Positions 2,449 through 64,000 of a stretch of DNA of 64,000 nt are shown one piece after another; the stretch's first letter is position 1; the number at the start of each line of letters is the position of its first letter. The notes under the pieces are model-generated. The model was not told where the DNA came from and did no database searches. It saw only the letters and a program-made list of their open reading frames with translations. The stretch is from Coptis chinensis (taxonomy: Eukaryota > Streptophyta > Magnoliopsida > Ranunculales > Ranunculaceae). The position numbers and the translations under genes were made by a program. The DNA is taken from positions 27,056,501-27,120,500 of the forward strand of contig CM027377.1 of NCBI GenBank assembly GCA_015680905.1, written 5' to 3'.

Positions 2449-2449
2449 T

Positions 2450-4131: not shown

Positions 4132-4136
4132 ACTAT

Positions 4137-4454: not shown

Positions 4455-4466
4455 TGGTATCAGAGC
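4455..4466 (+). other. Primer-binding site (initiator tRNA-Met type)
   Basis: TGGTATCAGAGC begins immediately after the 5' LTR and matches the usual plant retrotransposon PBS complementary to the 3' end of initiator tRNA-Met. Confidence 0.9.
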
Positions 4467-4514
4467 GGAGCTCCTAATCTCTCTCTAAATCAATCTAGAT
4501 AAACACAATACATT

Positions 4515-8936: not shown

Positions 8937-8943
8937 GGGGGAG
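8935..8943 (+). other. Polypurine tract
   Basis: GAGGGGGAG directly precedes the 3' LTR and is the plus-strand priming site expected there. Confidence 0.9.
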
Positions 8944-9261
8944 TGTGGGAGAAGAAAGGCAAGGGCGCAGTCGAGCCTTGACCAAGGCTAGTTGGAGCGC
9001 AGGTGCGCCCTAGTCGGTGTTTGCAGAGATTTATCAAATTCTTATGTTTTCTATAAAGGAAAGTCTCCAATCCTTTATAGAAACATATAAACACGAATAT
9101 GCACTCATGTTGTGCTATATAAACTCTCTGTAACCTAAACTCCTATAATTTCAAGCAAAATAAAAAACCTTTCTTCTCCCGTGGACGTAGGTCGCCACAT
9201 TGGCACCGAACTACTATAAATTATTGTGTCTTGTCTATTTATTTAGGTGTTAAATTCTACA
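8944..9261 (+). repeat. 3' LTR of the Copia element
   Basis: 318 bp, the same length as the 5' LTR with 8 substitutions and no indels. It ends CA and is followed by the duplication ACTAT at 9262-9266. Confidence 0.96.
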
Positions 9262-9266
9262 ACTAT

Positions 9267-10447: not shown

Positions 10448-10605
10448 GGGGTTAACGAGTATTACCCCTCCACTAGATGAGCCAATTAGGATTTCCCCAC
10501 TAGATGGGAAATTAGAATCTTCCTCAAGTGTCAAGTACACACAAAAAAACACAGTCAGACCCTAATTTCCCATCTAGTAGGAGGTGGGGGTAATACTAGT
10601 TAACC
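10448..10605. mobile_element. Small foldback element (MITE-like)
   Basis: The ends are inverted repeats: GGGGTTAACGAGTATTACCCC at the left corresponds to the complement of GGGGGTAATACTAGTTAACCC at the right, with one substitution and one extra base. A second inverted pair lies further in (ACTAGATGGGAAATTAG against CTAATTTCCCATCTAGT), so most of the 158 bp could fold back. No coding. The target-site duplication is unclear, so the superfamily is not assigned. Confidence 0.65.
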
Positions 10606-11117
10606 CAAAAATTAGTAACACAAAAGCACCAGCTCATAGATAACTTTCAGGAGTATTCGACATGAATAAACAATGAACTCGTTGATTTTCATTTTTAAGT
10701 GAATTGGAGCATTTATTACTAGCCCAAAGCAAAGTTTAAGAATAAATACAAACTTGCAAAGTATGTACTTTTCAAAAGCACAGTAGTATTAGTAATAGTT
10801 GTTAAATATTCTTATAGCAGCTGAAATCAATGATCATCAGAATGGTTAGGCATGTCAAAGAATACCGTACCTAAACATCTCAATGAATATTATTCTAACA
10901 GATAGAACTGAAATTACACATTATTTACAAAAAATTGCACTATTGTCTTCTTGTAGCAAGAAGCTTATCATAACATTCTCAAGACATGACCAACTGAGAA
11001 ACCCACGACGAGACTATAATTGTAGTAAAAGAAAATGTTATAATACTATTGGACAAGGCAATAATCATGAATATTGTGAAACTTGAGTAGAAAGTAACAA
11101 ATAGCTCTAGTACCTCA
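10606..11117. other. 3' flank of the 2H gene
   Basis: Non-coding AT-rich DNA downstream of the minus-strand gene; it presumably holds its 3' untranslated region. No distinct polyadenylation signal could be assigned with confidence. Confidence 0.4.
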
Positions 11118-11666
11118 TCATTCTGCAGCATTCCCAAGAGCAAACGAAAAAACCTCGCGAACAGGGGAAAACTCCACTAGTGCTATATCCATTCCACAAC
11201 CATTAACAGGCAACTTCAAATCTCGCAAAACACTAAAAGCCTCCGCCACTCGGTTTTTAGGGACATCTTGTGCAACAATGCATTGAGGTACCCATGAGTC
11301 TGGACAATACTCTTCACCTATTTCAATGTTCACCTTTTTCAGCTCATCCCACAACTGCATTTGAAATCGAAGCAGCGACAATGTAGGCGTCGGAGAAAGA
11401 AACAGAGTGTTTCCTGTACTTTCAAAGCTTCCAATGCTGGAGAAAGTTAAAGACAATGGTTCTTGCGTGGAAGCAAAGCTTTTTAAGACTTCTTTAAGTT
11501 TTGGGAGTTCAAGAAATGGAATAGAGAACAGAGTAATGTGTGGTCTAGACTCAATTTTGATGAGTTGGGAAGTGATCTGCCGGAGAGAAAGAACATTCCA
11601 AGCTTTCAAAACTTGGTTTTCAAGTGCAGGATCGAAGTAAAGCTCGATTGCGAAGCCTTGTGACAT
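11118..11666 (-). CDS. 2H-phosphoesterase / RNA-ligase-like protein
   Basis: 182 codons from ATG at 11666 (MSQGFAIELYFDP) to TGA at 11118-11120. The sequence fits the plant family annotated as RNA ligase/cyclic nucleotide phosphodiesterase-like (2H superfamily), soluble proteins that hydrolyse 2',3'-cyclic or 2'-5' phosphodiester bonds using two His-x-Thr/Ser motifs. The first motif is intact (RPHITLFS, His at about residue 43). At the second position the sequence reads WVPQCIVAQDV: the expected His is Gln and the expected Thr is Ile, so activity is doubtful. There is no signal peptide or membrane segment. The first 23 residues of the longer open frame depend on a non-ATG start and are not used. 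After splicing a 5' intron, an in-frame upstream ATG (MIKGVDSV) also becomes available. The reading frame is uninterrupted, unlike nearby transposon genes. Confidence 0.8.
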   Translation of the reverse strand: MSQGFAIELYFDPALENQVLKAWNVLSLRQITSQLIKIESRPHITLFSIPFLELPKLKEVLKSFASTQEPLSLTFSSIGSFESTGNTLFLSPTPTLSLLRFQMQLWDELKKVNIEIGEEYCPDSWVPQCIVAQDVPKNRVAEAFSVLRDLKLPVNGCGMDIALVEFSPVREVFSFALGNAAE

Positions 11667-11704
11667 TGTACTCAAATGGAATTCAATGAAAACAGAATCA
11701 ACTC

Positions 11705-11954
11705 CTAAGAACAGCGACAAAAACAAGTCACCCAATTATGTAAAACACCAAAACAAATGATCTTGAATGCTTGTCTTACAAGGGGGAAAGTGGAATTTAA
11801 ATTAAAGTAACCCCAACATGATAATATTTTTAATCTTGAGTGAGCATAGGGAGAAATCTGTATATGCAACAAAATAAAATAAACAACCAATTCAAGGCCA
11901 AGAAATATATATAGATTGAATAAAGAAAGAGTTAAAATTCAAAAGAGAAAATAC
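11705..11954 (-). other. Predicted 5' intron of the 2H gene
   Basis: On the minus strand, ATGATCAAAG|GTATTTTC at 11955/11954 is a good donor, and TTCTTAG|GAGTTG at 11705/11704 is a good acceptor, giving a 250-nt AT-rich intron. Splicing puts an ATG at the end of exon 1 in frame with the downstream coding region. Whether translation starts there or at 11666 cannot be told from sequence. Confidence 0.6.
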
Positions 11955-12058
11955 CTTTGATCATAAACAAAGCTGGCAAACACTGAAAGGAAAGAATAAA
12001 GATAGTTCACCAAAGTGTGATGTTGATAATGAGTCTTGGGTGGGGGGAGTATTGACTT

Positions 12059-12066
12059 TTTAAATA
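12059..12066 (-). promoter_or_regulatory. Possible TATA box of the 2H gene
   Basis: TATTTAAA on the minus strand about 100 bp upstream of the predicted exon 1 donor; spacing and context suit a plant promoter. No direct evidence of transcription. Confidence 0.35.
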
Positions 12067-12707
12067 CAGTAGAGCAATGGAGTTAGATCAAAGAAAGTGA
12101 GAGATGAAGCGAAGGCTATAAATGATGGTGCTGAAAGTTCCCATACCCAAAGACCTTACCACTTTTGTCCATTTACTGAATTTCTTTCTTGGTGCTGTTG
12201 AGTGTACTGCATGCTAAGTTCAACTTAAGAGACAAGAGTTCTAGTTATCCAGGTAAGTGTGCTGTACGTGTGTAATGTAAACTGCGTCAAGCATTGTCAT
12301 TTTTGGCAGCATGGTATGTCACTGATATTTCACTATGGTCAATACATACGTGATATGATTATGATAATTGGGATTTAAGGTAGCTATCATATTCTCTTCA
12401 CAGTTTTTTTTAAAGAGGAATCAGAATTTTCTGCTTCTCAAATAGAAATTCATTTCAATTTCGTGGAATGTTCAAAACATTGACAACGTAGTTCGGTTTT
12501 CAGTTTTCTCATGTGTTAGGACTTAGGACTTAGGACTTAGGCATCATATTCTGAAAGCGTCTTGTTAAAAGGTGGGTTTTGACATGCTGGAATTCCCAAG
12601 ATTTTGAGATTTTTTGACAGTACGCCGCATGTCCGCATATAGTGAACCACTGATTATTGTGAAAGTTTCATTATCAATAATGGGATCGGGGAATAATACC
12701 TACCTAC
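12067..12707. other. Upstream region of the 2H gene
   Basis: Non-coding. It includes a short (GGACTTA)n run near 12518-12540. No transposon ends recognised. Confidence 0.4.
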
Positions 12708-12894
12708 CATGTTGAAAATCAGCTCCAATAGGGAAACTGTCATCTTCTGAAATGCAGATAACCTGCCGTACTAGTTCTTCTTTGCTGACGAAAGGAATAT
12801 GACTTGTTCGTGACTTGCCGACTTGTACAGTTGTACTAGTGAATTGTGAGTCTGAATCCTCAGAATCTGCATGTTCTTTTTCCGAGTCTCTCAT
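12708..12894 (-). CDS. Possible first exon of an unknown gene
   Basis: An ATG-started frame (MRDSEKEHADSEDSD) rich in Ser, Glu and Asp runs for about 62 residues and ends at a good donor, CAACATG|GTAGGT (exon end about 12708). The composition is protein-like, but the sequence is not recognised and no following exon was found before the 2H promoter. It could be an alternative upstream exon of the 2H gene, an exon relic, or chance. Confidence 0.3.
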
Positions 12895-13187
12895 TAGTCA
12901 TTAGTCCCCAAGTCCCCAACTCCAAAAGCTACATACCAGGTACGGTGGGAATGTTTTTTTTTCAATGAGTTGATTGTATGGTGAAAAACCATTAAACCAG
13001 ACTGATTTAATTAGAATCATTTTGAGTATTGGGAATGTGATATAAACTGCCAAGAGCCCAACATAGTATACTGATTTTCGTTTTCCATGACTGTTTGTTT
13101 TTGTACGTATCTACCAGTTTTAACCATCGTTAGTTAGTTCGGGGACGGAAATTATTCGTAACCTGAATCAATAGGGAATTAGTCTAA

Positions 13188-13647
13188 GGGGGTGTTTGGA
13201 TCCTATTTATTTATTGCCAAAAAGTGTTTATTAGTGAAAAAACATTTTTTGAAAAAATAAATGTGTTTGGTTTCTATTTAAAAAAAAATAGTTTTTCTTC
13301 CAAAAAACACTTTTTGATCTCAAAAAGTTGTTTTATGATAATTTGTTTTATGATAATTAGGTAAAACTTGTTTTTCAAGTTAAAAAACTATTTTTCTTTG
13401 AAAGAAACACTTTGGGTGCTAAAGGCAAATGAACTCCCCGGATGTTTTAGACTTTTAAATTTTATCTTGATATATTACCAAAATATATCGAGAAACATAG
13501 TGCGAAATCTATTTTCATAAAATAGCTTTTAAGAAAAATTACAACCAAACATGTTGATTGAAAAACTGTTTTTAGAATAAATACTTTTTCATAAAAATGT
13601 TTTTTAAGAAAAAATGATTTTTTTTAAAATGAGAACCAAACACCCAC
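13188..13647. mobile_element. Tourist-like MITE (PIF/Harbinger type)
   Basis: A 460-bp element with terminal inverted repeats GGGGGTGTTTGG at the left and, as the complement at the right end, GTGGGTGTTTGG (one mismatch). It is flanked on both sides by TAA (13185-13187 and 13648-13650), the 3-bp target duplication typical of Harbinger/Tourist elements. The interior is AT-rich with many AAAAACATTTTT-type segments in both orientations and no coding frame. Confidence 0.8.
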
Positions 13648-13650
13648 TAA

Positions 13651-14385
13651 TTCATTTTCAATTTGGAAAAATTCATGAAAACATTCGGTTAGATAGTCGC
13701 AGTATGAGAAATATTCGCCTAAACAGTAATTCGTGAATAATTCAATATTCATCAATAAAAATTTGTAGATATAAACCACTTTCAATTCACAAATTTAGGT
13801 CAAAACCATAAGAAATTATTTGTATTTAGTATTCTAACTAAATAAAGCATCTTTAACAATGAAAAATATTCAAAATTCCTATTGAATTTCATATCTCATC
13901 CTAACACATAGGAGTTTATCTAATAAAAGTTTTTAAATTTTTTATGAAAATTCCGAATTTTTGGGCCGAATCCAAACGAAAATTAGAATTCAGGGTATCA
14001 TACTGCATTTTAATTACTTTTAGTCTACGTGATGACTGGAATAATACTTCTTATAAGACTCAATTTAATTAAGAAAGCATAAACGATATGTTCATAAGTC
14101 CGCCCACAGAAAATCACCAAAGATATTGATTTTGGTCTCGTCGTACCAAATCCAGTAAGAACATTATTTGTAACAGCCAGACCTAGCGTCAACAAGTCCG
14201 CTCTGCACTGAGAGCTGCAAGACCGAAAGATACCACATAAACTAAGCATAGCAATAAAAGACCACACAAATTCAAACTGCTAACAAAATGTGTTATGGAA
14301 AATAGAGAATTAGTAACTCATAGTTACAACTACTCCACAACAACGACTTCTTCTTTCAAATGGTCTTTGATATATAATTCAAATA
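13651..14385. other. Host intergenic DNA
   Basis: AT-rich; no gene recognised. A minus-strand open frame near 14025-14267 has no known motif and no convincing splice context. The right edge is the A of the AT dinucleotide where the next Helitron inserted. Confidence 0.5.
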
Positions 14386-16006
14386 TCTTATATATAAAGC
14401 GGATACTGGATTTTCCAATTAGTTCCCGTATTTCCGGTTTTAAACCAAAATTTTTAATATAAAGGGTACCGGAGAGAAGAGGGGACAGCCAATTTCTTTT
14501 TGCTATTTGCAGAAAGGATAAATCGGTAATTTAAACCATTCCCAGACTATGACATTTTCGGACACACCGTTTCGATCGCCTCCTTCCCGAAAGAAAATAT
14601 AAGAAAAAAAAAAACCGTTCCGACTCTGTAACTTCCCTATTCCCAAATCCCCTCTCAGATACTCTCTCCATGATCTCTTTCGTAATATGATTTTGTTATA
14701 ACAGTTATCTATCAGAATAAATAGAATGTTTGAACGTGTCGTGATCGCTTGATTTGGGTAAACAACACTTTTCCTTACTCCTTTTTTTTTTAATCCTCTT
14801 AGTTAATTCTTCTTTGGTAATGTCTAACTATAAATCACATTCAATTCTACTACCATACGTTAGTTTTTGAACATTTCATGTTTGACAAAATATTTTGGTG
14901 TACATTTACATGGATGTTTAATTGAAACAATGCGTCTCTTCCCATCTCCGACTCTCCGTATTCCTAATAAATAAATAAAACCTCAATTTCCTTCACTTTC
15001 TTCCCAATAAAACTTGACGAAAAGTTTTTGATTGCTTTGGTTATCCAGATTAACGCTTCCAACAGTCAATGACCATTGGTTCACCACAGAAGAGGTGTCT
15101 TCAATTTTCCTCTTTCTAATTTCAATGTTTTATCTAAGTGATTGAAAATTTTACCAAATTACAGATAACCCGTCATTCTCAAATTGTTCGCACTAACGAA
15201 TTTTAGGATGACTTATTTTCAGTACATTTACTTTATATTGGGTTGATAGTATTCTATCGTTCTACTTAAATTTCTTTGTTTATACAATGATATCAGTCAT
15301 TGTACATTTGCAGGCCTTATCAATTACTAAATGTGTTGTCCTGAGTTTGGCGATCATTAGGTTTGACACTTAAGGATTTGTGGACTATGGATGCATTACT
15401 TCGCCATGGAAGAGGTCAGCTTAGTGTTCATACTTTCAGATATTAGCATTTAATTTATTTTTTCAGTCTAACCTATGCACCAATGGTGTTATGTAAGTCT
15501 AACAAAATTCCAGACATCCAATTGTTGTTTCATTTCAATTAGCTTCAAAATTTAATCGACTTTCACTTGCCCTCTTTTAGTTCTTTCCTACCATTCTTCT
15601 GTGGGCTTGACCGTTTGACAAGGAACAAACTTAAAACTTATCAACTTCTGATCTCAGTTGAGTGTTTTCATTTCCTGTATTGATTGCATTCTTTTTTGGT
15701 TTATTCTGTTATGGTCCTGGTAGCGTATAATGCAATTCTAAGGTTGATTTTTCTTCTTCCCAAAATTATCATTCCAATGTATTCTTTTAGTTAAGGTTGA
15801 TGATTCTCATGGTGTTAATATGATGTAGAATGGACAAGAGGAGTTAATATTATATTTCCTCTATGTTTATTTAGAACTTTTACTTTTTTTTTTTAAGTCC
15901 CGAGTACGTGGTATTTTCCCAACATAAGTTGTCATCTAAATGCATTCAAATTCATACTTGTCAGTTATTCCTCAAGTTTTAAATGTATGTAATTATCTTC
16001 TTTCAG

Positions 16007-16073
16007 TTATTTGAAGGATAAAAATGGAAGGACTCATCACTCACATTCTGCCGTCACGCCGTTCTGTGAAGAG
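16007..16073 (+). pseudogene. Exon-like fragment in the Helitron
   Basis: A polypyrimidine stretch and CAG precede it, and GAAGAG|GTACC ends it. The frame starting at the second base is open through the 67 nt and reads YLKDKNGRTHHSHSAVTPFC. The product is not recognised. Similar AGAAGAG|GT-type borders occur near 15106 and 15414, hinting at further small exons of the same captured gene. Confidence 0.35.
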
Positions 16074-17394
16074 GTACCATTATTTTCCCACCTTTCCTTT
16101 TGCTTAATAGTTCCATTGCTTGCTAATCCTCGACGTACATCACCATTGAAATCCAACATTTATGTGTACGTAAATTAGTTGTTGCAGACTTACTGTTGGT
16201 GAAAAGCAAACATTGATTATAGAAATTTTCTGTTTGTATATATAGAAAGCTAGACGTTATCTTAGTTGTTTAAATAAAGTAGGCTAGGTCTCTATCCCCG
16301 GATTCACTGATTCAAGGGTTTTAGATGGGATGGGGGGCTCATCCAATTCCATGGGTCTCCCTGACGCCCTCTCGATCTCTTCCTTCTCTAAGTCAACCCC
16401 TCGCCTATCGAATGTAGCAGGGAAGCAGCCTTGAATAATGTGTGTCAACTTATAAAAATTGGTAAGGAGCGCCAAATTTATACCCCCTACTTAAAAAAAG
16501 TTGCTCAAGCAATTCACAGAAGAAGATATGAAGTGAACAGGACCTTCAAAAGTTCAATATGTTGATATTGATTTTAATTGTTTATTGACTTTTTTTTTAT
16601 TTGATTGAAAAGTTTAATTTTATCTATAAATCCAGTGATAGCGGTTACATCGACTAATGGAGGCCTGCTTATAACAAATTGTTATGTTGCGGGAGTACAC
16701 TATTTAGCTATTTTAGCCGTGTTAAAATTTTGAGAGCCTCTTCCCATAACCATAGCAATCATTCGGTGTGTTTTTCTTTGTTATACATTTGTCTTTCTCA
16801 TTGTGCGATATAGACCGATTAAATATTTTAGACAATGTCATTGTGACTTTGATGTGTTTTTAAAAATTAAAGTGCCCCCCGTATAAATTGGCGAGTCTAA
16901 CATATCAATTAGAAGAACTCTATATTATAGTGTGTTTCGTTTCAAGGTTTTTCTGAGTAGTTGCACTGAAGTGGTCCCTATTTCTTTGATACAATTTTTT
17001 TTTTTTGGCCTTAACGTTTACTTAGCTTCCTCAAAATCTCCTCTTATCTCTGCCAACATAACCTTCAAAAGAATTTGCCTGTTTAATATTGATATCCTCA
17101 CTTTTCTTACTGAGAATCTCCTCTTAGTTTAATTAATATTTATGTTGTATGTATGAGGACCATGTATAAAGAAGTTGTGTTATGATTCGTAATAAAAGAA
17201 TTTTACTTTATTAACTTACTTTTTAGACTTTTAGTTGCATTATCTACAATGACGTATTCTTTGAGTAATTTGATTATTACAGTAGCTATGAATTATAGTT
17301 GATATCATACCTTACAACAAGTGTCTTCGACCTGTTACTGAGATAGTTCCTTTTCTTTCATGCGAAGATCTTATGTGTGCATACCTCTATGCAG

Positions 17395-17525
17395 TGGGCA
17401 CAAGTGTTGTGAAATCCTCAATGGAAGCACATTATCGTCGGGTCTTATTGTTCTAACAACTTGGAGTTTATACCAAAGAGGAGTGGGGAATCCAAAACTT
17501 TGACCATATCGTTGATGTCTAACAG
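17395..17525 (+). pseudogene. Exon-like fragment in the Helitron
   Basis: It follows ...CCTCTATGCAG and ends at CTAACAG|GTATAC. One frame (GHKCCEILNGSTLSSGLIVL) is open for about 36 codons and then meets TGA, so it is decayed or the frame is wrong. The product is not recognised. Confidence 0.3.
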
Positions 17526-17680
17526 GTATACAAAACTTGCATGCAATCTCTTTGCTTCCTATTAATATTACCATGCTTTGTGATACCCTCATATTCTTGT
17601 TTAACATGCAATAGTTTTCCTTCTAATTTGAACTGTTTTATATGGAGCCCAGTTTTTGTTTTTAATTTTCAATTTTGCAG

Positions 17681-17844
17681 AGTCAGGATAGCAAATAGAG
17701 ACTGGGAATGATAATTCAGTTATACACGTGGAAAAATTTCTAAGAACAACTGATCCAGTTTTAAAATACCTTGGCATGCTAAGAAAGCTTGATACATTTC
17801 CCATTGGTGGTGCTCTTTGTGGCTTTAACAGTCATTTCCAGTTT
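17681..17844 (+). pseudogene. Exon-like fragment in the Helitron
   Basis: It is preceded by TTTTGCAG and ends at a plausible donor, TTT|GTAGTATG. Apart from one TAG near its start (possibly from CAG), a frame is open and looks protein-like (VEKFLRTTDPVLKYLGML and onward). I do not recognise the family. It lies in the same strand and order as the two upstream fragments. Confidence 0.4.
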
Positions 17845-18172
17845 GTAGTATGCCCATTAGTTCTTTGTGAATTGTTGAGTGTTTTAACGGCATATACACC
17901 CCCCCCCCCCCAAGGTTCGGAAAAAACAAGGAATATATTTAATTGAAAATATGTTGGACGATTATCTGTCTCTAATACATTGTAGTTGAAACAATTGCTA
18001 TTTCTTATAATCTATGTTTCCCTCTTAGAAGCATATTACACTGTACCATAAATCTTCATTTCCCCCCTTCCTACAAAGTACAAACCAGTTACCACATGCA
18101 TTTTTCAGACCTCCATGCAGAGATATTGCAAAATACTTGCTGTCAATCACGTGCGCACGTGCCATCTACTAG

Positions 18173-51340: not shown

Positions 51341-51797
51341 TGTAGAAAAAAGGTATTTTTTTCTCTTTCACATGTAGGGCGCGACCCGCGCTTACTTTTG
51401 CCTTGACAAGGGCGCGCCCTGCGCTCATGCCTTTGGTGACCTCCAGGAGCTTAAACGCCGACCAAGACTCATTTTGCTTGGCGAGGGCGACCGCTCCAAT
51501 CGCTTTTCAACACGAAATTCACTGTTTCGGAAGTTTTTTGAAACAGTATAAATATAGATTTTTTATGTAGAAACCTAATTTTTTTTCCAAAACTAAGAAA
51601 GAGAGAGATTATAAGTGAACAATTTTTTGTGAGTTGAGTGTTCATTCTTTGTGAGTGAATTGAGAGACTTGTAATTTGTTACTCCGGACATCTAGTAAAG
51701 TTTGGAACTCGCAGTGTGGACATAGGCAAATTGCCGAACCACGATATATCTCGTCTTGTGGTTTGTTCTTCTTTTACATTAATTGTTTTACTTTAGA
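51341..51797 (+). repeat. Copia-like LTR fragment interrupted by a Helitron
   Basis: It starts TGTAGAAAAAAGG and contains GC-rich GGGCGCGACCCGCGC and AAGGGCGCGCCCTGCGC, a TATAAATA motif near 51549, and then GTGGACATAGGCAAATTGCC...GAACCACGA...TCTTGTGGTTTG. This matches the order of blocks in the LTR at 4137 (GTGGACGTAGG, CCGAACCAC, TGTCTTG) without being the same family. No coding region or primer-binding site follows; at 51798 the Helitron begins. The rest of the LTR, and whether it was solo, lies beyond the Helitron outside this window. Confidence 0.75.
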
Positions 51798-51827
51798 CTA
51801 GTAAACGGGCACGTGCGTTGCACGTGC
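51798..51827 (-). other. Helitron 3' terminal hairpin and CTAG
   Basis: On the minus strand a stem of GCACGTGC repeated around the loop AAC (51827-51809) is followed by seven bases and CTAG (51801-51798), with T as the next host base. This is a textbook Helitron 3' end. Confidence 0.92.
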
Positions 51828-54800
51828 TAGGAAAGAAAATTGGGGTAGAAAAATCAAAGGAAAGAATTATGTATAATGTAAAATATAACATATTACATTT
51901 GTCTGAATGGAATATGTAAAATGGTTTATATTCAAAGAACTTCAATAAGAGAAAAAAAACGATTGAATATGCTAGTTTTAGTCTTTGTTTGATTCGATTT
52001 TTGTTGCAATGCTGCGAATAAATATATTTGAAGAGGTATTTAACCGCCTGTAATTTAGTTAGTATGTAATTAGTATTGTATATGGCACAAACTAATTTAC
52101 CTAAAAAATAGGTATTATGTTGATGAAGTTTACCTTTGTGCTGCTAGTCGTGTAATTCTTTTGTGGAGCATTTATAATTGATGGAGGAACATTGTTGGAT
52201 TTATATGAGTGTATTACCGGTAAGATATAAGAATATTACATCATGTTGTGCAATATAATTGATATTCTAAACTGAAGAATAAAATAGCTGACAAAAAATG
52301 CAAGAAGAGTAACCTTTTTCTTTTTATTGTCTTCAGAATGATCTAGCGATTCCATTTTTTTTTTTTTTTTTTTTGTTTATTATTTGGATCGGTTTAAATA
52401 AGTAGGAAGCTTGGAGGGTTGGTAGCTAAAAAAAGCCTTTTTTGGTTTGTTTTATTTAGGAACGTCCACATTTAAGTTGGATATAATATGTGGACTGAAT
52501 TGAATGTGTAAATAATAGTTTTCGGTAAGATGGCTATGTTGCAAAATTACAAATTAAAAGATTTTAATATAATGTGGATCCATTTCATGTGTATGGAGAT
52601 TGAATTATTCAAATGATGGAGGGTTGAATTTTTTCAATCGATTTGTATGGAGGTGTCAAAAGGAAGAAATTATGGATGTGCTAGCTGCATCGCTGAATTA
52701 CATCTGTGTCATCCTTCTGTTAGTCGCACATTAATTTGATCAATTCTTACATTGTTTATTGGTCCCTATTCTAAAAATGTGATTAGCACCAAGTTACACA
52801 TTCAAAATTTTGCAAGGTTTCGGGATTCCACTTGATTAACATAATGAAATGAAATGTTGGTTCTTTGGTCCCAATTTATGAACCTTTTTCTTTTGCACCA
52901 AGCTGCACATGCCATTCATCAATCTTTTGCTTCATGATGGATTGGGTTGGACCATTTTTATATATTGTTCGGGGCCTGAGCATGGTAAATAACTAATTAT
53001 TGAAATATTTCCCAACAATGGCGGAATCATGGATAAATATTTTACGAAGGAGTTTATGAAATGCAGTAGTGAATAAGAAAAAGTACACTAAAAAGTAATG
53101 AATCGCTCTTGAAAGTGTACGTGATGTACAGTCTTGAAAACTACAACACTATGAAAGAAAAAATGATACGATGAAACAATTTAGTAGAGTTAAAATGGTC
53201 TATTTAAAGTTGGAATATGTTGTTGAAGAGACTGAAATTAGTCATTATCAAACCTTTTTTGTAGGATAATGTTATTTGTTGATGCCAAAGATGGCACATG
53301 AGAAATTGGGAAGGAAGAGAATAAGTGAGGCTTTGACAATGGATTGTTGTTTGTATGTATACTGACAGTTTCGCTTAAGAAACGGTTATAGTTTGAAGGA
53401 ACCATACGAGCGGTAGTTGAAGCAGTTAGTACTTGAATTTTGAAGGAAGAGTTTTTTGACGATTGAGGGGATTGAACTTCAAGCAGTGAGGATCGAAGGG
53501 ATAAGTTTGTTTTTTTTTTTTTTTTTTTTTCCATTCTTGGGCCTTCCCAGTCAGTTTGAAAGCTCTATGGTATGGGCATTTACAAAAAGCAATATTGGAA
53601 ATCCGCTCTCAAGCAATAGCTCGTATGAAGGCGTGAATGCAGACTAAATGTAACACTCGTAGCTCCCTCCTACAACTCTATCTGTGTATTAGCAAGGTGT
53701 TGTAAAAAAAATTGACGTTTGTATGTAAAATAGTAGTAATTATAAATGACACAATACCGTTTAAAAACTGATGTACACCAAAATGAGTACATAATTATAG
53801 AGATCTTGCAATGTTGAATTACGCCAAAAACATACAGATTGAGTTCATGGGTATAACATGTGGAAAAAAACTTTTGGTTGCAGCAAGAACAAATGTTTTC
53901 GGCGTCAAACTCTTCGAGATTCACGGAGCTCGAGAGGGACAGCAGCGTGAAGAGTGATCATGGTTTTGTAGTTTCCCAGCTTCTTCTTATACGTCTAACT
54001 AGAGTTTCTTCTTAAAGAATCTCATCAATACGTCTCACTGGAGCATTAATCATTTCACTTGTTTGAGAGTATGAAGAACTATTTCTGAAGTACTCTTATA
54101 CTCAGTTGACCCAGGAAGAAGCTCCTTGAAGTACACACTACTCTCTAAGCTCCAACGAAAAACTTCGTACAGACTCCCTTTCCCATGCGATCCTTCACTT
54201 TTTATCTGCTGTTACATAATGTCAAACACACATGCAATCTACCCACCACCATCTGAGCTATTTGGCATAGGTTACCATCTTACCTATGAGGCAACAAATT
54301 AACATTTAATAGCCGATAGACTTACTGGGGCCATCTTCAAACATTTTAACAACCAATACTTAAACAGTTGAAGTTGGTAAGTTTATTTTTTTTCGAGAAA
54401 CTTCAAGATTTCAGCCATTGTATTTGCCAATGTCCGCTTTCCACCAAACCGGACACCATCACACCACAACAAAGACGTCACAAACACAACACTCTAGCAC
54501 ATGGCCTGCTAGCATACACATACACACAAAATACAAAACACGCCCACACTACCACCTCCACCAAACCAGAACACACCATACACTACCACATCCATAACAC
54601 CACAGCACAGCACATATTCTTTCATCAAACTTTTATTTAAACTAAATATAACAATAAATGTAAGTTTAGCATTTTACTGAACATAATTAAAGGCTATTAC
54701 CTGGTAAATTTTGTGGATTCTGTTAGATGCAGCAGTCGTGCCTGAAGTTTCCACGGTTTCAGTAAAATTGAATGCATAAATTTCCTGTGCTAACATAATA

Positions 54801-56239
54801 TGCACATTTTTTCCTCTTGTGTTAGTAATAGTGGAAATCTGCTTTCAAGCAATGGCTCGTATGAAGGCATGAATGTAACACTTGTATTCCCTCCTACTAC
54901 TCTATCTGTTTATTAGCGGTGTGTTGTAAAAATATTTTTGCTTATTAGCACAGGCCTTCTACAGGGTGTCACTCCAGACCTTGAGCTTCAGGAAAAGCTT
55001 GCCAGTAGAAACGAAAGGAGCCGACCTATATTCGAGAAGAAAAGAAGAAGGTCAATTAAGAATAGAAAACCCTAAGAGTTTAAAAGACAAAGCTTACCCT
55101 TAACAGGTACTTCCCTATAACCCTTCGGAGTGCTTGGGTAGTGAAGGAGTATTACTTTTTCTTTCCTTGATGACAATTTAAGGTCTTGGACAATTCCTGA
55201 TTATTAAATCTGAATAAGTAAAGGAACATATTGAAGAAGTTGTGAATCAATATGATGTCGATTTCACAAGTATGTTATTGTTTCTAACATGACACAACAG
55301 TTATCGGCTATCTGTAGGACCAACATAGTAAGAGCATAGTAGAATCCATTTCTGTTTTTTGGATGTCCTACGTTGTTACATTCTAAAAATATCCAGTATG
55401 AAACACATGGGAATTCGACAAAACAAAACAGAAACATAAAGCATACCCCTTCAACATGAGGTGGCTCAATCGTTTGCTTGTAGATCCCATAACTACTAAT
55501 GTAAAAATAATTGTTTGACGCCGGCACTCAGGCCTGCCTGTTACAACCAAACAACATTAGAGTATGAGAAGCCAGAACACAGCAGTTTATGCATGACAAA
55601 TGCACTGTTTTATTTTTCCTTCTAATAATTGCTTTATCAAATGAAACTATGAAACTAATAATCGCAAAAAGATATAAAAGATAATTACAAAAATACTAAT
55701 GGTGAATTTGGAGACAGGAAACAAACCTAACAATATCCAAATCTTTGCCTTTTTATTCAACACAAAATTGAACTCCACCCTGCCAACAACATCCGTTTCA
55801 AATATGCTCAGATAGAGTAGCATGAACTGCAAGTAACCTTTTCTAAGAACTCGATAGTGGTTGCAGTTTTTTTCAGGTGGAATGCCTCCTTAATAGCTTT
55901 TACAACCTTTTCTTGTAGTGGAAGCATTTGTTTCCCTGCTAGACTGTCAGAAATTGGAACATATGTCCCTCAAGTACCTTAGATCTTGATCCCTTAAATC
56001 TATAAACCTTTAAAACCAAAGTGATTATATATACGAATGTACTGTAAAATGGAAATTATATAGAGGGAATCAAAGAAATAGCACAATAAATGCAATAAAG
56101 TTATGCACATTATTATAGTTAGTTCTGATACGTATGATAGAGATGTATTTCATGTCTAAAAGCAATAAAGTTACAGAAGATAACACAATAAGTTTTCTTT
56201 TTAAGAACATAACTAATAATAAAAACAAATAAATATAAA
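51828..56239 (-). other. Helitron 3' non-coding region
   Basis: About 4.4 kb between the RPA gene and the 3' end. It contains a direct repeat (53590-53710 and 54828-54942), a CA-rich segment (54435-54610), T runs near 52357-52374 and 53508-53530, and two unidentified protein-like stretches: plus strand near 54958-55060 (LLQGVTPDLELQEKLASRNE) and minus strand near 55850-55960 (SLAGKQMLPLQEKVVKAIKE). These could be further captured exons. Confidence 0.5.
53590..54942 (+). repeat. Pair of ~115-bp direct repeats inside the Helitron
   Basis: 53590-53710 and 54828-54942 are similar over about 115 bp: GGAAATC(C/T)GCT(C/T)TCAAGCAA, GCTCGTATGAAGGC, then ACTCTATCTGT and GTGTTGTAAAAA. The copies are 1.24 kb apart and differ by substitutions and a small deletion. 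Only the outer limits of the pair are given as coordinates. Confidence 0.8.
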
Positions 56240-59036
56240 ATATCTCCATGGCATGATCTACTTTGACACATTTGATCTTCAGTCCTACAAACAAAGAAAA
56301 AATATATGTGATTGAAATGAGTAAGAAGAGTCATGTAGAATTGTGGTAAAGGTCAATTTGTTTGAAAATAAGTAATGTTTAAATACCTTGTTTTCTTTTA
56401 TCCTACGAACTCTTTTAGATGGAGGTCTAATGACTGAAGTTCGGGATGTTTCATTCGAATCTCCAGTCGAAAATTCCTTTGAGAAATAAGCAGATAGAAG
56501 ATAAGTGAATGTCTAACAATTTATTAAAAAGGGAAACATATAAAAGTAAAACACATACCATATAAGCTTTTCTTTTGAAAGTTTGATTAGATCTTTTTTT
56601 CTTATTTGAGGGCTGAGGAATGTCATTGGAACTTGCCAAAAGAATCTGCTGCTAGACAAAAGAGCATAATAAGAATAAAGCGATGAATAAAGGAATATGC
56701 AATTTTGTTTTTGTATAGATACTTAGTCATTTGCAGTAGGGTAAAAGTAAATGAATACCTTTTCTTTCATAAGAGTTGAGTTGTTCTGCTTCATGTTGTC
56801 AGGTAGTTGGGCTTGGAAGGAATCATTTAAAATATGTGATGACTCTGTCACCTGAGTGTATATTAAGAGGTAAACCAATAAATATAAGCCAATGATAAAT
56901 AAGCATGTTATTGGTAGCTTAAAATTGAACAGGTCCAAAGGGCGAAAAAATGAAGTATGTATCTAATAGATAAAACACAATCATAAAGGAAAAGTTTGTA
57001 TATCTATTTACCTGTTCAATTTCTTCTTGTATTTGGTGTGAATATATCAAGATTGTAATCCATCTGAAAAACCTTATTAGCTGTAAAGCCATCCCTTCCT
57101 TGACTCTGGATGTTGTATTGGTTGATTTTTATCTCAAACACTATCGAAGTTCCAATAATTTCATCCATTATGGCCTTAACAGTTTGGATACCATCTGCCT
57201 ACTCCAATAAATGATAATTATTCAGTTATAATGTTGTATTTTGTAAAGATATATTGCATGGCATAAAGATCGGATGCGAAAATTTTGATAGCGTTGTAAT
57301 GGTTTTACCGATTCGATAAGCCTAGCCAACTCAGAAGCTGGATGTTTTAGTAGCTTTTCTGCTTCATCGCCAAATATAGTTATTAGGGTACTTTCTGTGT
57401 CATCTTGAATGCGAACTTTCAGTTGATACCTAGCATACATTTTTATTAGATCAAAATCATAAAGTCGAGAGAAGTATTGAATGAATATCTTTAAAAAAAA
57501 AAAGAATATGAATACACACCTAGCATCCAGAGATGGAATAGCATTGTTGCAATTATTGCACCAATAGTGATCACCTTTGGCTATAACTTTTTTCCGGCAG
57601 CCGATTTTGGTGCAAGACTTATAGAACGGTGCATAATCATGAACAATATCATTAATAATTGCTTTTCATGTGAAGACTTGTCCCTGTATGGAATGTAAGT
57701 ATTTTGAGAAAAATAAAATTAAATATGGTCGATAGGCAAATGTAGAGTAAACTTACAACAGAATCTGCGTTTAACATCTGAAGAATTTGCGAAAGCGTTT
57801 TCCTGTTTCTTAAAGATCTATCCTTCATATTACATTCAACTGATGACAAAGCTTGTAGCACTGAAATATTTCTTTCTTTGAAAGTGGAGCTGTAAAAATA
57901 TAAAATATAGTCATACTTGATCAATGGCTAGTTAATAAAAGTGTATATTTTATTTTAAATAAGTTTTCATTTTATTTGATCACCTGTTTTGTAATTCTAA
58001 CACTTCTGGAATTTCCAAGTTTACATAGAATTGGGTTGCGCTTGTTGAATTAAGGAAGTATTGATCTGAAAAAGAAAAAATTTAAGATTAAATAGGTTAT
58101 GTAAAAGAAAAAGTGCTAGCTATATAGATTAAAAATCCAATATAATCACCATAATAGCTTCCAACAAGTAGCTTAACCAACAACCAACACCGCTTTTCGT
58201 TGCATACGTAATAACATTATCCATCAATTGTATTGCATTTTCCCAGAGATTTATTTTCAGTTCAGTTCCACTGCATAGATAATATATTATTGTGTTAATG
58301 TATAGAGTTGGTTATGCATTTTGTAAATTCTAAATAAGCATATGGAAAAGCAAACCTGCTATTCTTCAAGAAGATCTCTTTCAACATAAGTCCTTTTCTA
58401 AACATCAATTCTGAAACACCTTCAAGCGTACCATACACATCTGAAAAAAACAATTTGATGAAATAGTCATTTCTAACGATGTTTTTAGAATTGAAAGACT
58501 ACTATTATATCACGGCAACTTACCTTGCAGATTCTGATTTTCTTTTGGAAGCAGCCTAATTTTGTTAAACTCAACGAAGTCAAAATTATATTTTGGAATT
58601 TCAGGGTGTGCTTCGGAAGATCCCCTAACAATAGTATCCCATCTAATAAGTATAAGATATTCGTGTTGAACGGGGCGGTATGAATTTGTTCTAGTTTGCA
58701 CACTGAAGTTTTCAATAATGTGATATACATGTCCTTCGTGAAGAACATTTAAGAATGTGTTCGAATGGTTCTTAGGAACAATGGCTTGAATTTGATTTCC
58801 CTGAAAATAATTAAAAGCATTTAGGCAATGTCATAATGGGGAGAATTCAATGTAACGTAACATAAATGACTTATACGAATTACCTGTTCATCAATCAGGA
58901 CAACATCAAATCTTTTCTTCTTCTCTTGGGAGTCTTTACTGCCTAAGGTCCATCTTCTCGAGACACGAACTTTAATTTTACACCGATGAGTTCTGTCAGT
59001 TAATTCAGACAATCAAACATATTCTGTTGTACCCAT
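56240..59036 (-). pseudogene. RPA70-like single-strand DNA-binding protein of the Helitron
   Basis: Thirteen exons can be drawn with GT-AG borders on the minus strand: about 59036-58884, 58800-58524, 58440-58356, 58270-58148, 58065-57984, 57889-57757, 57683-57520, 57429-57309, 57198-57012, 56851-56759, 56645-56559, 56476-56387 and from 56284. Exons 1-2 form an OB fold (CKIKVRVSRRW, GNQIQAIVPKNHSNTF, YHIIENFSVQTRTNSYRPVQ, YNFDFVEFNKIRLLP). A DVYGTLEGVSE block follows. Exon 7 has a CX4C...CX2C zinc motif (CTKIGCRKKV, YWCNNCN) of the RPA C-terminal domain, exon 8 LKVRIQDDTESTLITIFGDE. The tail is basic (PPSKRVRRIKENK). RPA is thought to coat single strands during Helitron replication. This copy has TGA at codon 8, TGA in exon 7 and a shift in exon 4. 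Confidence 0.87.
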
Positions 59037-59247
59037 TTGTAACGTGTACCTAAAGTGCAATGAATTAGTTGAAAGGAAAAATAAAGCAACAACATGCCAA
59101 ATTTAAAAGTTGTAACTTAAAAGTGAGGAGATTTAAAAGCCAACCTTTTTGGAGTGATTTGGGTACTTGTTGTTCTTGGTGATGACGTATAAGAGAATGG
59201 AACAGAAGTAGGAGAAGAGAGGGATTTGAAAATGTAGTTTTTTGAGT

Positions 59248-59255
59248 ATTTATAG
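59248..59255 (-). promoter_or_regulatory. Likely TATA box of the RPA gene
   Basis: TATAAATA on the minus strand, about 210 bp upstream of the ATG at 59036. It is followed by a CT-rich leader and by a possible 5' UTR intron (CAAAAAG|GTTGGC near 59146 to CACTTTAG|GTACACG near 59052). Confidence 0.5.
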
Positions 59256-59868
59256 TAATTATCATACCTGTTACAGGGTAGTTAGGATTGTCAATGTATG
59301 AAGTAACTGAATCTGTATTCTAAACGGTGTGTAGGATGTATCTCTTTTCAAATAGATTCAACTGAAACCCAGATTCTTGGCTTTAAGGGAAGTGGTTGTG
59401 TAACTGTTTATAAATGAAAAACTTGGCAGTTAAGCCAATTTTTTTTTCAAGAAAAAAACGGAAGAAAAAAAATTAATGTGGGAAAATATTTCTAATACGT
59501 GTAGTAATTCCTAATAAAATTCTTGAATATGATTTAAAAACGTGTAATTCAAAATAAACAATGTTACATAGCGATAAAAAAAAATTCAAAAAGATTTATG
59601 ATATTTTTTTTTGTTAGACAAACCTCTGTTGAGCTTTAAAAGCAATGTTAGCGACTACCGTTTTTTGTAAAACGGAACTTGAAAAAAAAATAACGTCAAG
59701 ACATTCAAAAGGAGACTACAATAGAACAAAAAAAATTGGGACGGAAGCTTGCAGTTCTATGAAGAAAATGAGTGTCAGTTCTATATTACCACCATGTGTA
59801 AATGATTTTATTATAGTCATCTCTGTATGAATTCATGTGAAGGAACAAAGGCAAGTGTGTTATGTATG

Positions 59869-60870
59869 TCAGAACGAAGTTCCAGTATCATAGATCAACA
59901 ATGACGACAACAATATAGTCTTGTCTAGAGAGTATATATCAGACTTGGTTCCTAGCATGCCCGTTTGTTGGTACTCTGGGTCTATGTAACAGAATGTCCC
60001 CGCTGCTGATGTCATGTGATATTGAGTAACCGTGTTGGCCACCGAGGGTGGGACCAAACGTGCCATCCCAACGTCACTGATCTTGGTCACATAGTTGTGA
60101 TATAGGAGAATATTGCATGGTTTAAGGTCCCGATGCACTAGGGTCTCTGGTTTTGTTTGGTGAAGGAATAGAAGTCCAGTTGCAATGTCGGCTGCTATCT
60201 TGAATCAATCCACCATGGAACCGTAGGTGTCCCTCCCCTCCTAAAGAGCCTTTCTTCTAAGCTACCATTGTCCATGTACTCGTAGACTAAGCATCCGGAC
60301 TCGGAAAGCCGAAAGCAAAAGAACCATGTTTGGATGTCTAATGCGACTTAACACTTCCACCTGCGTAGTCATGTTTGTTCATCATGAATACAAAATTTCG
60401 TGATAAAGACATAAATGCATAGTTATTTACTTATGCTACCACCACCGCTAGCACTATATATGTTACCTCTTGTTGGAATTGTTTCATCGCCAGGCCGCAT
60501 CCGATCTTAAGACCTTAATGGCAACCGGTGTGTGATAAAGCTCACTCTATAAACCGCCCATATCCACCTTCACCAATCTTCGTGAGAATCTGAGAAGTTA
60601 TCAGTAGCAATCTCGATCTCTTCTATGTCGTATGTTACTGTTCGCCAAAGCAGTCAAGACATTGGTTTTCGCTTCTGCCGCAGTCAGAGCCTTAATCTCG
60701 ATATCCTTCCTCCTCTTTGTCTCCAGTTCGGCTATCCTTTTTGATGTTGCAGCAGCTTCATTGGCCGCCTGCGTCCTCACATTTTGCATCTTGGCAATTG
60801 CAAGTGCTGCCTCTTCAACAAGCTTTGCATCCTCAAACTTGCGAGCTTCATTAATTTTCCACTGGTGAAA
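59869..60870 (-). pseudogene. Captured fragment of a U-box-type receptor-like kinase
   Basis: On the minus strand, a coiled coil (60868-60600: AALAIAKMQ, RIAELETKRRKDIEIKALTA) leads into a kinase start (IATDNFS, then KIGEGGYG), an intron-like stretch (about 60470-60376), a part equivalent to RHPNMVLLL, GCLVYEYMDNGSLEERL, and the catalytic loop VHRDLKPCNILL with KISDVGMARLVPPSVANTVT and GTFCYIDPEYQQTGMLGTKS. This order (coiled coil, kinase with DVG) is that of plant PUB-type kinases, which also carry a C-terminal U-box. The N-terminal sensor part, the end of the kinase and the U-box are missing, and frameshifts are present. Retained introns mean it was copied from DNA. Confidence 0.85.
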
Positions 60871-60889
60871 CTCTAAAGCCTGATATCAA

Positions 60890-61440
60890 ACATCACAGAT
60901 ACCAATTTTCTTAGTAACTTGGTTTTGAAGGAAATCAAGAAAGGTTCAGGCAAACTTGGCGAGTCAATGAAGTTGCTTTCATGATCTTTCACGTTCTGAC
61001 CATATAGTCCGGCAACTGGCATGGACACCAGAAATGCATGAGCAGCGTGGCCAGTGTTTGTCATGAGCTCGCGACAAAAAAAATCATATGACCATGAATT
61101 ATTCTGTCTATAAAGCAGATGAGGAGCAACTTGTAAGTCTGTAAAGAAGGTTGCAGTCTCAAAAACAGGATACTCAGTAGCACTTCATAAGCATCAGGGA
61201 ACCGGTGTGGCAGAAGGAATGCAATAAGAAGATAATTGCATGTTGGAACATTAGGGCACAGACCTGCGGCAACCCTATACTGAAACCATCTACGAGCTTT
61301 ACCAGCCTTTCCCCATGAAACTAACGGGAGAGCGTAGACAGGTTCATCTGGAACCAAATTATTTAGTTTCATATCTTTAAAAACAGCCTCTGCTTCAGTG
61401 AGATGACCACAATGGGCAAGGACTTAATCACACAAATGTA
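60890..61440 (-). pseudogene. Captured fragment of a pentatricopeptide-repeat gene
   Basis: Minus strand: AHCGHLTEAEAVFKDMKLNN, LVPDEPVYALPLVSWGKAGK, RWFQYRVAAGLCPNVPTCNY, LLIAFLLPHRFPDAYEVLLS and LRLQPSLQTYKLLLICF are consecutive degenerate 35-residue PPR units. After a frame change, NTGHAAHAFLVSMPVAGLYG and QNVKDHESNFID follow. From memory this corresponds to the region between the last PPR units and the SMR domain of proteins like Arabidopsis At1g18900/At1g74750. Neither the organelle-targeting N-terminus nor the SMR domain is present. It abuts the kinase fragment at about 60880. Confidence 0.82.
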
Positions 61441-63169
61441 TTTGTTTATGGATATGTCTATGTCCTAAGGGCACTGGTATCATTGCCCTGTCATCGAAAC
61501 AAATGCTCCCTGGATAAAGGCCAGTGTCAAGTAATCTGATAATAACTTTTTTACAATATGAAGCCGCAGGCCATAAACCAAAACTGTGTAAATAGGTCTC
61601 CATATGACCAATGGTATGCGGCACGATCACCTGGTAGTTTATGCATATCGGATAGCTGAAATTGTGTTAGCCTCGAACTAAATACATCCATAATATGGTT
61701 GTAGGAGTAGAGTAATGTTTCTTACTTGAGCGATGCCAATGTGTATCGATGCAATGATTCACGTGTTAAGAAGGGTGCCGGTTTTCCATCGGCTTCTTTT
61801 GCATCATCATTTAAAGTTGAATAACAATGACGGTAACAGCTAGAATTGAATTTAGTTCAGTCTGAAAACATTGTTCATATCTCAGCTTTTGCACCACCAT
61901 TGACTCTATTGGCCTCTTTGTCGTCACAATCGATTGTTAATGGAACAAAAGGCAGATGCGATGACTTGTATATCTTGAACAAACTGCACGAAGTTTAAAA
62001 GTAATATGTAAGCACGTGGAGAATATAAGGAAAATTGGTCATATGATGGATAAATAGAACTATATACACTTGAATAAAAAAAAAAGGCCAGTCCACAGAT
62101 CGTACGGAGACGCATAAATCAAATTTTTAAAACAAAATATTCTTGTGCAGAGTTAAATTCTTCAATCCTAATCTTATAGACCCATTAACGGGTGCACATC
62201 TTGTATATCACATTTACAAACCTGTACTTGCAGAACAACTTCAGTGACGTGTCTATTGTTTCAGCCCCACACGAAAAAAACTTAAATCAACTTTAGTGAC
62301 AGATAAATTGCTGACCACCACATGTAGAAGCTGAAATTGGAAAAGGACGAAACGATAGGAAGTAAGAGCTTGATAGTCAGCACTTCATAAGAAAAGTTCA
62401 ATAGTCAGCACTTCCTAATAAAAGTTAGAATGGTTGACATGGTATATTTAAATTCCGAAATGAAGCTATCACTACTAAGGATAACTAATAGCATACAACA
62501 TAAAAATAAATTTATTTCCCCTCCTCCTTTATCTGGGCTTGGGACCAGCAATGCAAAACGCAAAATGCATTGGCGGAGTTAAATTTTTTTTTGGTCAGTC
62601 TGGATACCCTCCCTTTAATAGTTGTTATTCTAATTGTTTGAGCGTTTGCTTTGTTTACAAATCGAAATTCATCGAAAAAACTAAAGGCACCTGTGTTCTG
62701 TACCAACAAAAGGAAACAATCACATAGTAAATATTACACGTTCTAAGGCACGTTCAATTTGCACTCTCACTACTCTTTACTAAAAATCCTAGTGACTACT
62801 TGAGCATTATTGGGTGGTTAAAGACATATATAGGTTTTAGGGGGTGTAATAGAAAAATCAGATAGGAAGACAATATTGTGAATTCAATGGATTGCCCAAA
62901 AAATTTCCTCATATGATATCTCTAATTCATGAATGTTTATATCTCCGTGGAGAGTTTTTTAAAAAGTAAAGCGTGGGGGAGTGGTGGGGATGACGTATAC
63001 CTAAATGCAAATATTAACTGTGGGTGGGTATCCCGAACTAACCATATTGTTTATTTTAACTGCAGTAGAAAAGTATTCATCACATTTTATTGTACATATG
63101 AAAACCAGGGAGTGAAAAACAAAGGAATAACGATTCATTGCATGATAGCATAACGACACGAAAAGAAGG
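61441..63169 (-). other. Helitron region between helicase and PPR fragment
   Basis: Mostly non-coding. Minus-strand stretches near 61640-61425 and 61830-61730 look partly coding (for example NDDAKEADGKPAPFLTRES) but are not recognised; they could belong to a third captured gene or extend the PPR one. Short repeats of AGTCAGCACTT(C) near 62375 and 62402. Confidence 0.45.
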
Positions 63170-64000
63170 TTAGTGTAAAGCATCCATAGCATCATCATCA
63201 TCTGAAAGTAACACATCCCGATATACAATATTTCTAGTGTAAGTTCCACAACGTTTAGTTAAGGTTCCATTTTTGACTAAAATCTTTATGTTATTTCTTG
63301 AGACGCACCTCGACAATGCAACGTATAGTTGGCCATGAGTGAAAACATGATCAGGAAGGTATATACCAACATCACGAATAGTTTGTCCTTGTGATTTATT
63401 AATAGTCAATGCGAAACTAAGCTTAATTGGAAATTGTTTCCTTATAAAAGTAAACGGCATGTGTTCACTTTTATTTGGCTCGAGAGGTATTCGTGGTATA
63501 AACTCTTTTTTACTTCTGAACTGCCCAGTGGCAATCTCAGCATATATAGTATTATCATAGAAATGAACACAAATTAATCTAGTACCATTACAGAACCCTA
63601 TAGTCGGATTAATATTTCTAAGAAGCATGATTGGGCATCCCTTTTTTAGAGTTAATTGATGTGGGGGGCAGGCCACCTGGTGCAATAGAATTCAAAAATT
63701 CTTGTTGATATAAGTTCCGAAGATTAGGTGGAACAATATCAAATGAGTAGTAGGTTTTTTCTTGTCCTGGGAACATGTCTATAATCTGATTATTGAGTTT
63801 ATCGACAACATCATTCCTCGGTGTTAAAATAGCCCTATCAATAATGTAATTACTATTACATCCATTAAGACTTAGTGAAGGATAAACAAAATCTATTAGA
63901 TCATTTATTGAGGAATCACCTGTCCAGGGCAATACAATATCATCAGGTAATCTAATCATTCTATCATCATCAATATAAGGCTCGTCACCATTTCCTACAC
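63170..64000 (-). pseudogene. Helitron Pif1-type helicase, C-terminal part, frameshifted
   Basis: Two overlapping minus-strand frames. The first (from the window edge to 63618) has MIRLPDDIVLPW, DFVYPSL and DRAILTPRNDVVDKLNNQII. The second (63685-63170) has KKGCPIMLLRNINPTIGFCN, the SF1 helicase block LSFALTINKSQGQTI and GQLYVALSRC. The frame changes inside or next to a run of six C on the minus strand (63665-63670). This is the C-terminal half of the RepHel helicase; the Rep nuclease part lies beyond the window. It ends at a stop at 63170. RepHel nicks and unwinds DNA for rolling-circle transposition. Confidence 0.92.

What the first reader, a model, noticed from the sequence alone, without database searches (positions are those of the whole stretch)
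51798..64000. Large Helitron carrying helicase, RPA and two captured host-gene fragments
One element holds a Helitron helicase, an RPA70-like gene with its introns, and in between them, in the same orientation, pieces of a PPR gene and a U-box-type kinase gene. Captures placed between RepHel and RPA in a gene-carrying copy are less common than captures in short non-autonomous copies. The layout could give a chimeric transcript.
Basis: partly seen in the sequence, partly recalled or inferred. Interest (0 to 1): 0.75.

Follow-up and report, generated by a model that had tools for sequence, protein, structure and literature searches.

The report
Plant Helitron carrying two gene fragments
This is a complete 18-kb rolling-circle jumping gene of a plant that picked up broken pieces of two host genes in separate steps and carried them to new places; the kind is already known from maize, but the steps can be read unusually clearly here.

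Summary
The element is a full-length plant Helitron of 18,083 bp, window 51798 to extended coordinate 69880 (C1:27126380). Rep and the 5' TC end lie past the window edge. It sits between A and T in a retrotransposon LTR; a second copy of that LTR, 17.6 kb downstream, is the empty site. Ten further copies carry the same PPR and kinase pieces in the same place. One, at C9:80.85 Mb, matches at both ends with different flanks, so the whole unit moved.

Acquisition was stepwise: PPR first, kinase later, probably from an already chimeric repeat, with a 4-bp microhomology. A deletion private to this copy brings the pieces together. The cargo is broken and weakly or not constrained, while the helicase is constrained between cargo-carrying subfamilies. 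RepHel of this copy is broken.

RepHel+RPA Helitrons with gene fragments and stepwise capture are published for maize (PMC3288121). This is a new member of a known kind; the chimeric transcript is untested.

The parts
51798..64000 (-). Helitron, part inside the window; the whole element runs to extended coordinate 69880 (L009:5980, C1:27126380), 18,083 bp
51798..51801 (-). 3' end CTAG, followed by host T
   Evidence: 19 of 20 fetched loci end exactly here with different flanks
51809..51827 (-). hairpin just inside the 3' end (GCACGTGC AAC GCACGTGC)
51341..51797 (+). flank: part of a retrotransposon LTR that the Helitron interrupts; the rest of the LTR starts at extended coordinate 69881
   Evidence: joined flanks align as one match to L011:3630-4234, 92.1% identity
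57225..57665 (-). RPA-like gene, C-terminal part
   Evidence: Rep_fac-A_C E 1.9e-16
58513..58830 (-). RPA-like gene, DUF223 exon
   Evidence: DUF223 E 1.3e-8
58887..59036 (-). RPA-like gene, first exon (extent approximate); one in-frame stop in this copy
59134..59930 (-). segment upstream of RPA, shared with family members that lack the kinase piece
59927..60969 (-). captured kinase-gene piece; 4-bp microhomology CTCT at the RPA side (59927-59930)
60964..60969 (-). point of a deletion private to this copy; the other 10 kinase-bearing copies have about 0.69-0.82 kb more here, alike in content
60964..61432 (-). captured piece of a PPR gene (nearest intact gene found: L062:543-1019, 85.6% identity)
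63173..64000 (-). C-terminal helicase part of RepHel; helicase and Rep go on in L009:150-1640 and L009:1588-2370

Best explanation
A formerly autonomous RPA-type plant Helitron lineage that acquired host gene pieces between its helicase and RPA genes in at least two steps and kept transposing with them. Shown: complete element with A^T insertion; the same cargo at the same place in 10 other copies; a sister that matches at both ends with different flanks; the PPR piece also in relatives without the kinase piece, with matching boundaries; a kinase junction with 4-bp microhomology; a private deletion between the pieces in this copy; broken cargo. Inferred: helicase function during the time of cargo carriage (from rate ratios); capture by template switching or filler-DNA repair during transposition; the kinase piece taken second-hand from a chimeric repeat (L028/L030/L031 type) and not straight from a kinase gene; the cargo is a passive passenger.
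For: Rep, helicase and RPA domains; empty site in a second LTR copy; 3' ends; sister C9:80.85 Mb starts at A|TC and is 97.0% identical over e 1-5183 (e = 69881 minus coordinate), matches on to e 12386 and at e 16271-18083 (96.0%); 11 kinase-bearing copies; relatives C7:19.0 Mb and C8:9.4 Mb with the PPR piece and no kinase match in the fetched stretches; C9:64.4 Mb with kinase-free sequence at the RPA side; intact PPR gene with an 892-aa frame at C5:63.26 Mb; helicase dN/dS 0.16-0.21 between the window/C1/C9 subgroup and C2, all cargo-carrying, against 0.65-0.69 for kinase and 1.03 for PPR.
Against: No copy with intact RepHel and cargo was shown; past autonomy rests on pairwise rate ratios from few changes (22-22.5 synonymous, 13.5-17 non-synonymous per pair) and on lesions that differ between copies. 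Inside the window/C1/C9 subgroup the helicase ratio is 0.40-0.56, and against C8:9.45 Mb 0.24-0.44. The kinase ratio lies below 1, so weak constraint, or constraint before capture, is not excluded. Frameshift counts from pairwise alignment are inflated in divergent copies. About 3.9 kb of the C9 sister (e 12387-16270) was not fetched.
Confidence: 0.9

Rival explanations
1. The PPR and kinase pieces are separate later insertions (nested transposons) inside a Helitron.
For: The kinase piece is also found in a repeat with other gene-like sequence (L028, L030, L031).
Against: No further end of this Helitron type inside the element; gene-internal boundaries with 1-4 bp microhomology; in the kinase-free C7 relative the two flanks do not adjoin, 4.4 kb of other sequence lying there. 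Ends of other transposon types were not sought.
Confidence: 0.05
2. The fused unit yields a functional chimeric transcript or protein (exaptation).
For: All pieces lie in sense with RepHel and RPA; the kinase dN/dS is somewhat below 1.
Against: In 11 of 11 copies the kinase frame shows at least one stop or frameshift; PPR ratio 1.03 over the 21 of 66 pairs with enough sites; no expression data could be examined.
Confidence: 0.05
3. The kinase piece was captured directly from a host kinase gene, such as L027 or an unsampled paralogue whose intron resembles the L028 flank.
For: L027 is 94% identical over 59927-60969 and its kinase exon is open.
Against: The copy C1:35.9 Mb shares about 450 bp upstream of the kinase part with L028 and L031 (about 390 bp with L030) that does not align to L027.
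Confidence: 0.3

Closest known systems
ZmhelB2 and ZmhelA1 of maize (Dong et al. 2011, PMC3288121; abstract, results part 1 of 2 and section 9 read)
   Same: Putative autonomous Helitrons; ZmhelB2 has RepHel followed by RPA in the same orientation and two postulated gene fragments, ZmhelA1 eight; stepwise capture is proposed there.
   Different: Here the fragments lie between RepHel and RPA, at least 11 copies carry them, and the order of the steps and the pre-kinase state at the RPA side are visible. Where ZmhelB2's fragments lie was not in the text read.
Plant Helitrons with PHRPA, Mothra and its sister family in rice (PMC4683698; abstract and passages read)
   Same: Plant-type RPA beside RepHel (sister family); a captured fragment that predates the radiation of the family.
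   Different: Mothra is non-autonomous and its mother element lacks RepHel; here RepHel, RPA and cargo travel together.
Hel1 Helitrons of Spodoptera frugiperda (PMC6544945; passages read)
   Same: Stepwise acquisition with 2-13 bp junction homologies, read as filler-DNA repair.
   Different: Insect elements; here the element is of the plant RPA type, and its junctions show 1-4 bp.

Membership tests
Helitron (RPA-type plant Helitron) | Rep domain plus PIF1-like helicase | tested here: met
   Helitron_like_N E 1.3e-39, PIF1 E 2.6e-66; frame broken in this copy
Helitron (RPA-type plant Helitron) | 5' TC and 3' CTAG (CTRR) ends | tested here: met
Helitron (RPA-type plant Helitron) | hairpin a few bases inside the 3' end | tested here: met
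Helitron (RPA-type plant Helitron) | insertion between A and T without target duplication | tested here: met
Helitron (RPA-type plant Helitron) | RPA-like single-strand binding gene | tested here: met
   DUF223, Rep_fac-A_C
Helitron (RPA-type plant Helitron) | rolling-circle transposition activity | not testable with these tools
   needs experiment or polymorphism data
Autonomous Helitron | intact RepHel reading frame | tested here: not met
   frame split in the window copy
Helitron gene capture | identifiable host source gene for the captured piece | tested here: met
   PPR: nearest intact gene L062; kinase: L027-like gene, possibly by way of a repeat
Helitron gene capture | chimeric transcript | not testable with these tools
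   no RNA data held

The most novel reading that the evidence does not exclude
The interval between RepHel and RPA is a long-lived cargo bay: an autonomous Helitron lineage stayed functional while carrying, losing and swapping host gene pieces there, took one piece second-hand from another chimeric repeat, and even exchanged its helicase module relative to cargo and RPA (in C7:19.0 Mb the helicase is dS 0.70 from this element, but the PPR piece is K 0.14 and two RPA exons dS 0.12 and 0.16).
Probability: 0.35. Interest if true: 0.5.

Novelty: new member of a known kind. Interest (0 to 1): 0.35.

Why it matters
Helitron gene capture is well known, but its steps are seldom seen with sources, intermediates and end products in one genome (my judgement). 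Here the nearest intact PPR gene, a candidate chimeric intermediate for the kinase, kinase-free relatives and a multi-copy cargo-carrying subfamily are all present. That makes it possible to ask whether gene-carrying Helitrons stay autonomous and whether capture proceeds by template switching.

Tried and rejected
Separate nested insertions were considered and found unlikely. Exaptation of the cargo was tested by frame integrity and dN/dS and is not supported. An RPA exon-1 dN/dS run kept no pairs because the exon is too short. The C9:64.4 Mb copy was first suspected of holding other captured genes; its insert shares sequence with the 5' side of the C1:35.9 Mb stretch and looks like a CACTA-type transposon (name from recall, no family scan). 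Naming the interrupted retrotransposon Copia-type also rests on recall of its primer site and gag; no family scan was made. Paper searches on captures between RepHel and RPA (0 papers) and on gene-carrying or autonomous Helitrons (listings) gave no closer case than PMC3288121; subscription journals are mostly not held. Hel-It1 of Ipomoea was searched for (listing only; nothing read). The species was not identified; that it is a plant follows from the gene content. Nature and copy number of the L028 repeat stayed open (searches unanswered), as did the origin of 61433-62124 (unanswered, not repeated).
Full report
Coordinates. The window is C1:27056501-27120500 of an unnamed 936-Mb genome in 116 contigs. 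It was extended to the right with L009-L011; extended coordinate x equals the window coordinate, and L009 position p is x = 63900 + p. Positions along the element are e = 69881 - x.

Is it a complete Helitron? Yes. The minus strand starts TCTTATATATAAAGCGG at x 69880 and ends CGTTTACTAG at x 51798, 18,083 bp. A DNA hairpin lies just inside the 3' end (z -5.57). The element interrupts a retrotransposon LTR (Copia-type by recall). A second copy of that LTR in the same orientation, L011:3630-4234, about 17.6 kb downstream, aligns to the joined flanks as one match, 92.1% identity with small gaps. It reads TTTAGA directly followed by TACTTGTTTTA where the Helitron sits (allowing the few mismatches further out). 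It ends where the LTR ends, so it is probably the 3' LTR of the same retrotransposon, though a solo LTR is not excluded. The 3' end matched 40 places (414 candidates, 40 scored); of the 20 fetched, 19 end exactly in CTAG followed by T with different flanks, and one (L044) loses the match five bases short of the end. The 5' end gave 48 matches (316 candidates, 40 scored), and the same 5' end preceded by A also occurs in the window at 14386.

Genes. Pfam finds Helitron_like_N in L009:1588-2370, PIF1 in L009:150-1640, Pif1_2B in 63173-63691, and DUF223 and Rep_fac-A_C in the RPA gene. RepHel of this copy is spread over several frames with one in-frame stop, and the first RPA exon has an in-frame stop. 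The C9:80.85 Mb and C1:35.9 Mb copies have RepHel frames broken in a different pattern, so at least some lesions arose separately.

The captured pieces. PPR: 60964-61432 matches L062, part of an 892-aa open frame at C5:63.26 Mb; seven PPR_2 stretches lie in the 460 residues scanned. Another open frame of 886 aa at C1:21.13 Mb is more distant (63% against 84% protein identity to the L036 query). The same stretch of L062 (about 534-1022) bounds the piece in C7:19.0 Mb (93.7%), C8:9.4 Mb (89.8%) and C1:35.9 Mb (86.2%), which points to one capture before these lineages split. Kinase: 59927-60969 matches L027, whose kinase exon is open (Pkinase E 9.1e-31), and three broken copies L028, L030, L031 that are 94-96% alike over about 4 kb; L028 has a weak FBD/LRR-like stretch on the other strand, below Pfam's cut-offs. 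The C1:35.9 Mb Helitron aligns to L028 and L031 over 10160-11962 of its stretch, but to L027 only from 10607. About 450 bp upstream of the kinase part are thus shared with the repeat and not with this gene. The repeat reaches further into the kinase gene than the Helitron does, so it is not simply derived from the Helitron.

Order of events. At the RPA side the kinase source reads TATACTCTCT|TGGG, the kinase-free copy C9:64.4 Mb reads GAACTCT|AGACAAG, and the window reads TATACTCTCT|AGACAAG: a 4-bp microhomology. The kinase-free sequence just before that point is shared by C9:64.4, C7:19.0 and C8:9.4 Mb, so they did not lose the kinase secondarily. At the PPR side the junction in C1:35.9 Mb shares about one base. 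C7:19.0 Mb has helicase, PPR piece, 4.4 kb of other sequence and RPA, without kinase. So PPR came first, and the kinase came later with loss or lack of the sequence between PPR and RPA. The window copy alone lacks about 0.69-0.82 kb that all 10 other kinase-bearing copies have between PPR and kinase, alike in content (C1 against the other nine). That stretch contains kinase-gene sequence (it aligns to L027 from its position 452 on).

Copies. Of 87 matches to 59000-63200 (591 candidates, 40 scored), 11 places including this one carry the kinase and RPA side in line; all 10 others also have PPR sequence upstream, and for 9 of 10 a match to the helicase end is listed (not for C6:98.28 Mb). Counts are lower bounds. 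With the places typed into, 9 of the 11 have a 3' end 6.3-8.2 kb from the listed match, and 6 of 11 have both ends within 30 kb (18.1, 18.7, 19.1, 19.3, 19.5 or 19.8, and 22.0 kb). C9:80.85 Mb was compared over e 1-12386 and 16271-18083. Shorter relatives with both ends and PPR matches but no listed kinase match measure 8.8-12.7 kb (C3, C4 and two on C5); their sequence was not fetched.

Selection. Pooled dN/dS was 0.22 for the helicase end (36 of 36 pairs, including the divergent C7 copy), 1.03 for PPR (21 of 66 pairs, the rest too short) and 0.69 and 0.65 for the two kinase exons (55 of 55 pairs each). Between the window/C1/C9 subgroup and C2, all cargo-carrying, the helicase gives 0.16-0.21; inside the subgroup 0.40-0.56; against C8:9.45 Mb (PPR, no kinase match listed) 0.24-0.44. 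For the subgroup-C2 pairs the kinase exons give 0.59-0.90. I read this as a helicase that worked while the lineage carried its cargo, followed by decay; the numbers of changes are small. Every one of the 11 kinase pieces has a stop or frameshift. Alignment gaps inflate frameshift counts in divergent copies.

A mosaic relative. C7:19.0 Mb has a helicase at dS 0.62-0.81 from each of the eight members compared, yet its PPR piece is K 0.12-0.15 from window, C9:80.8, C2, L025, L026 and L035, and two RPA exons dS 0.12 and 0.16 from the window (the other two RPA exons were not covered). Against a simple picture, the segment just upstream of RPA is only 74% identical, and the helicase-PPR spacer is mostly unalignable. 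Either modules were exchanged between Helitron lineages or two elements are fused there; a simple motif scan showed no clear Helitron end between helicase and PPR.

Literature. PMC3288121 (abstract, results part 1 of 2 and section 9 read) reports putative autonomous maize Helitrons with gene fragments, including ZmhelB2 with RepHel and RPA, and stepwise capture. PMC4683698 (abstract and passages) covers plant Helitron RPA. PMC6544945 (passages) reports junction homologies of 2-13 bp under the filler-DNA model. The finding is therefore a clear new member of a known kind.

Noticed in passing
window 14386: A second Helitron 5' end (A|TCTTATATATAAAGCGG, + strand), 79% identical over 142 bases to this element's 5' end; a motif scan for a 3' end of this type found only the one at 51798.
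   Followed up: partly
L034/L040 (C7:18999501-19011500): Mosaic relative: divergent helicase (dS about 0.7) with a closely related PPR piece and RPA exons; possible module exchange between Helitron lineages.
   Followed up: partly
L028, L030, L031: Chimeric repeat of at least 4 kb with a broken kinase-gene copy and, in L028, a weak FBD/LRR-like stretch on the other strand; likely source of the kinase cargo, nature unknown.
   Followed up: partly
L038/L039 (C9:64386501-64402500), L032:1-975: Another transposon, CACTA-like by recall, interrupts one family member after the helicase; part of it also lies upstream of the truncated C1:35.9 Mb copy.
   Followed up: no
window 61433-62124: Sequence upstream of the PPR piece, shared by family members but not by the fetched stretch of the PPR gene; origin unknown.
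   Followed up: no
L011:5187-9257 (extended 89087-93157): Minus-strand frames that look like gag-pol of another Copia-type retrotransposon (by recall, no family scan).
   Followed up: no
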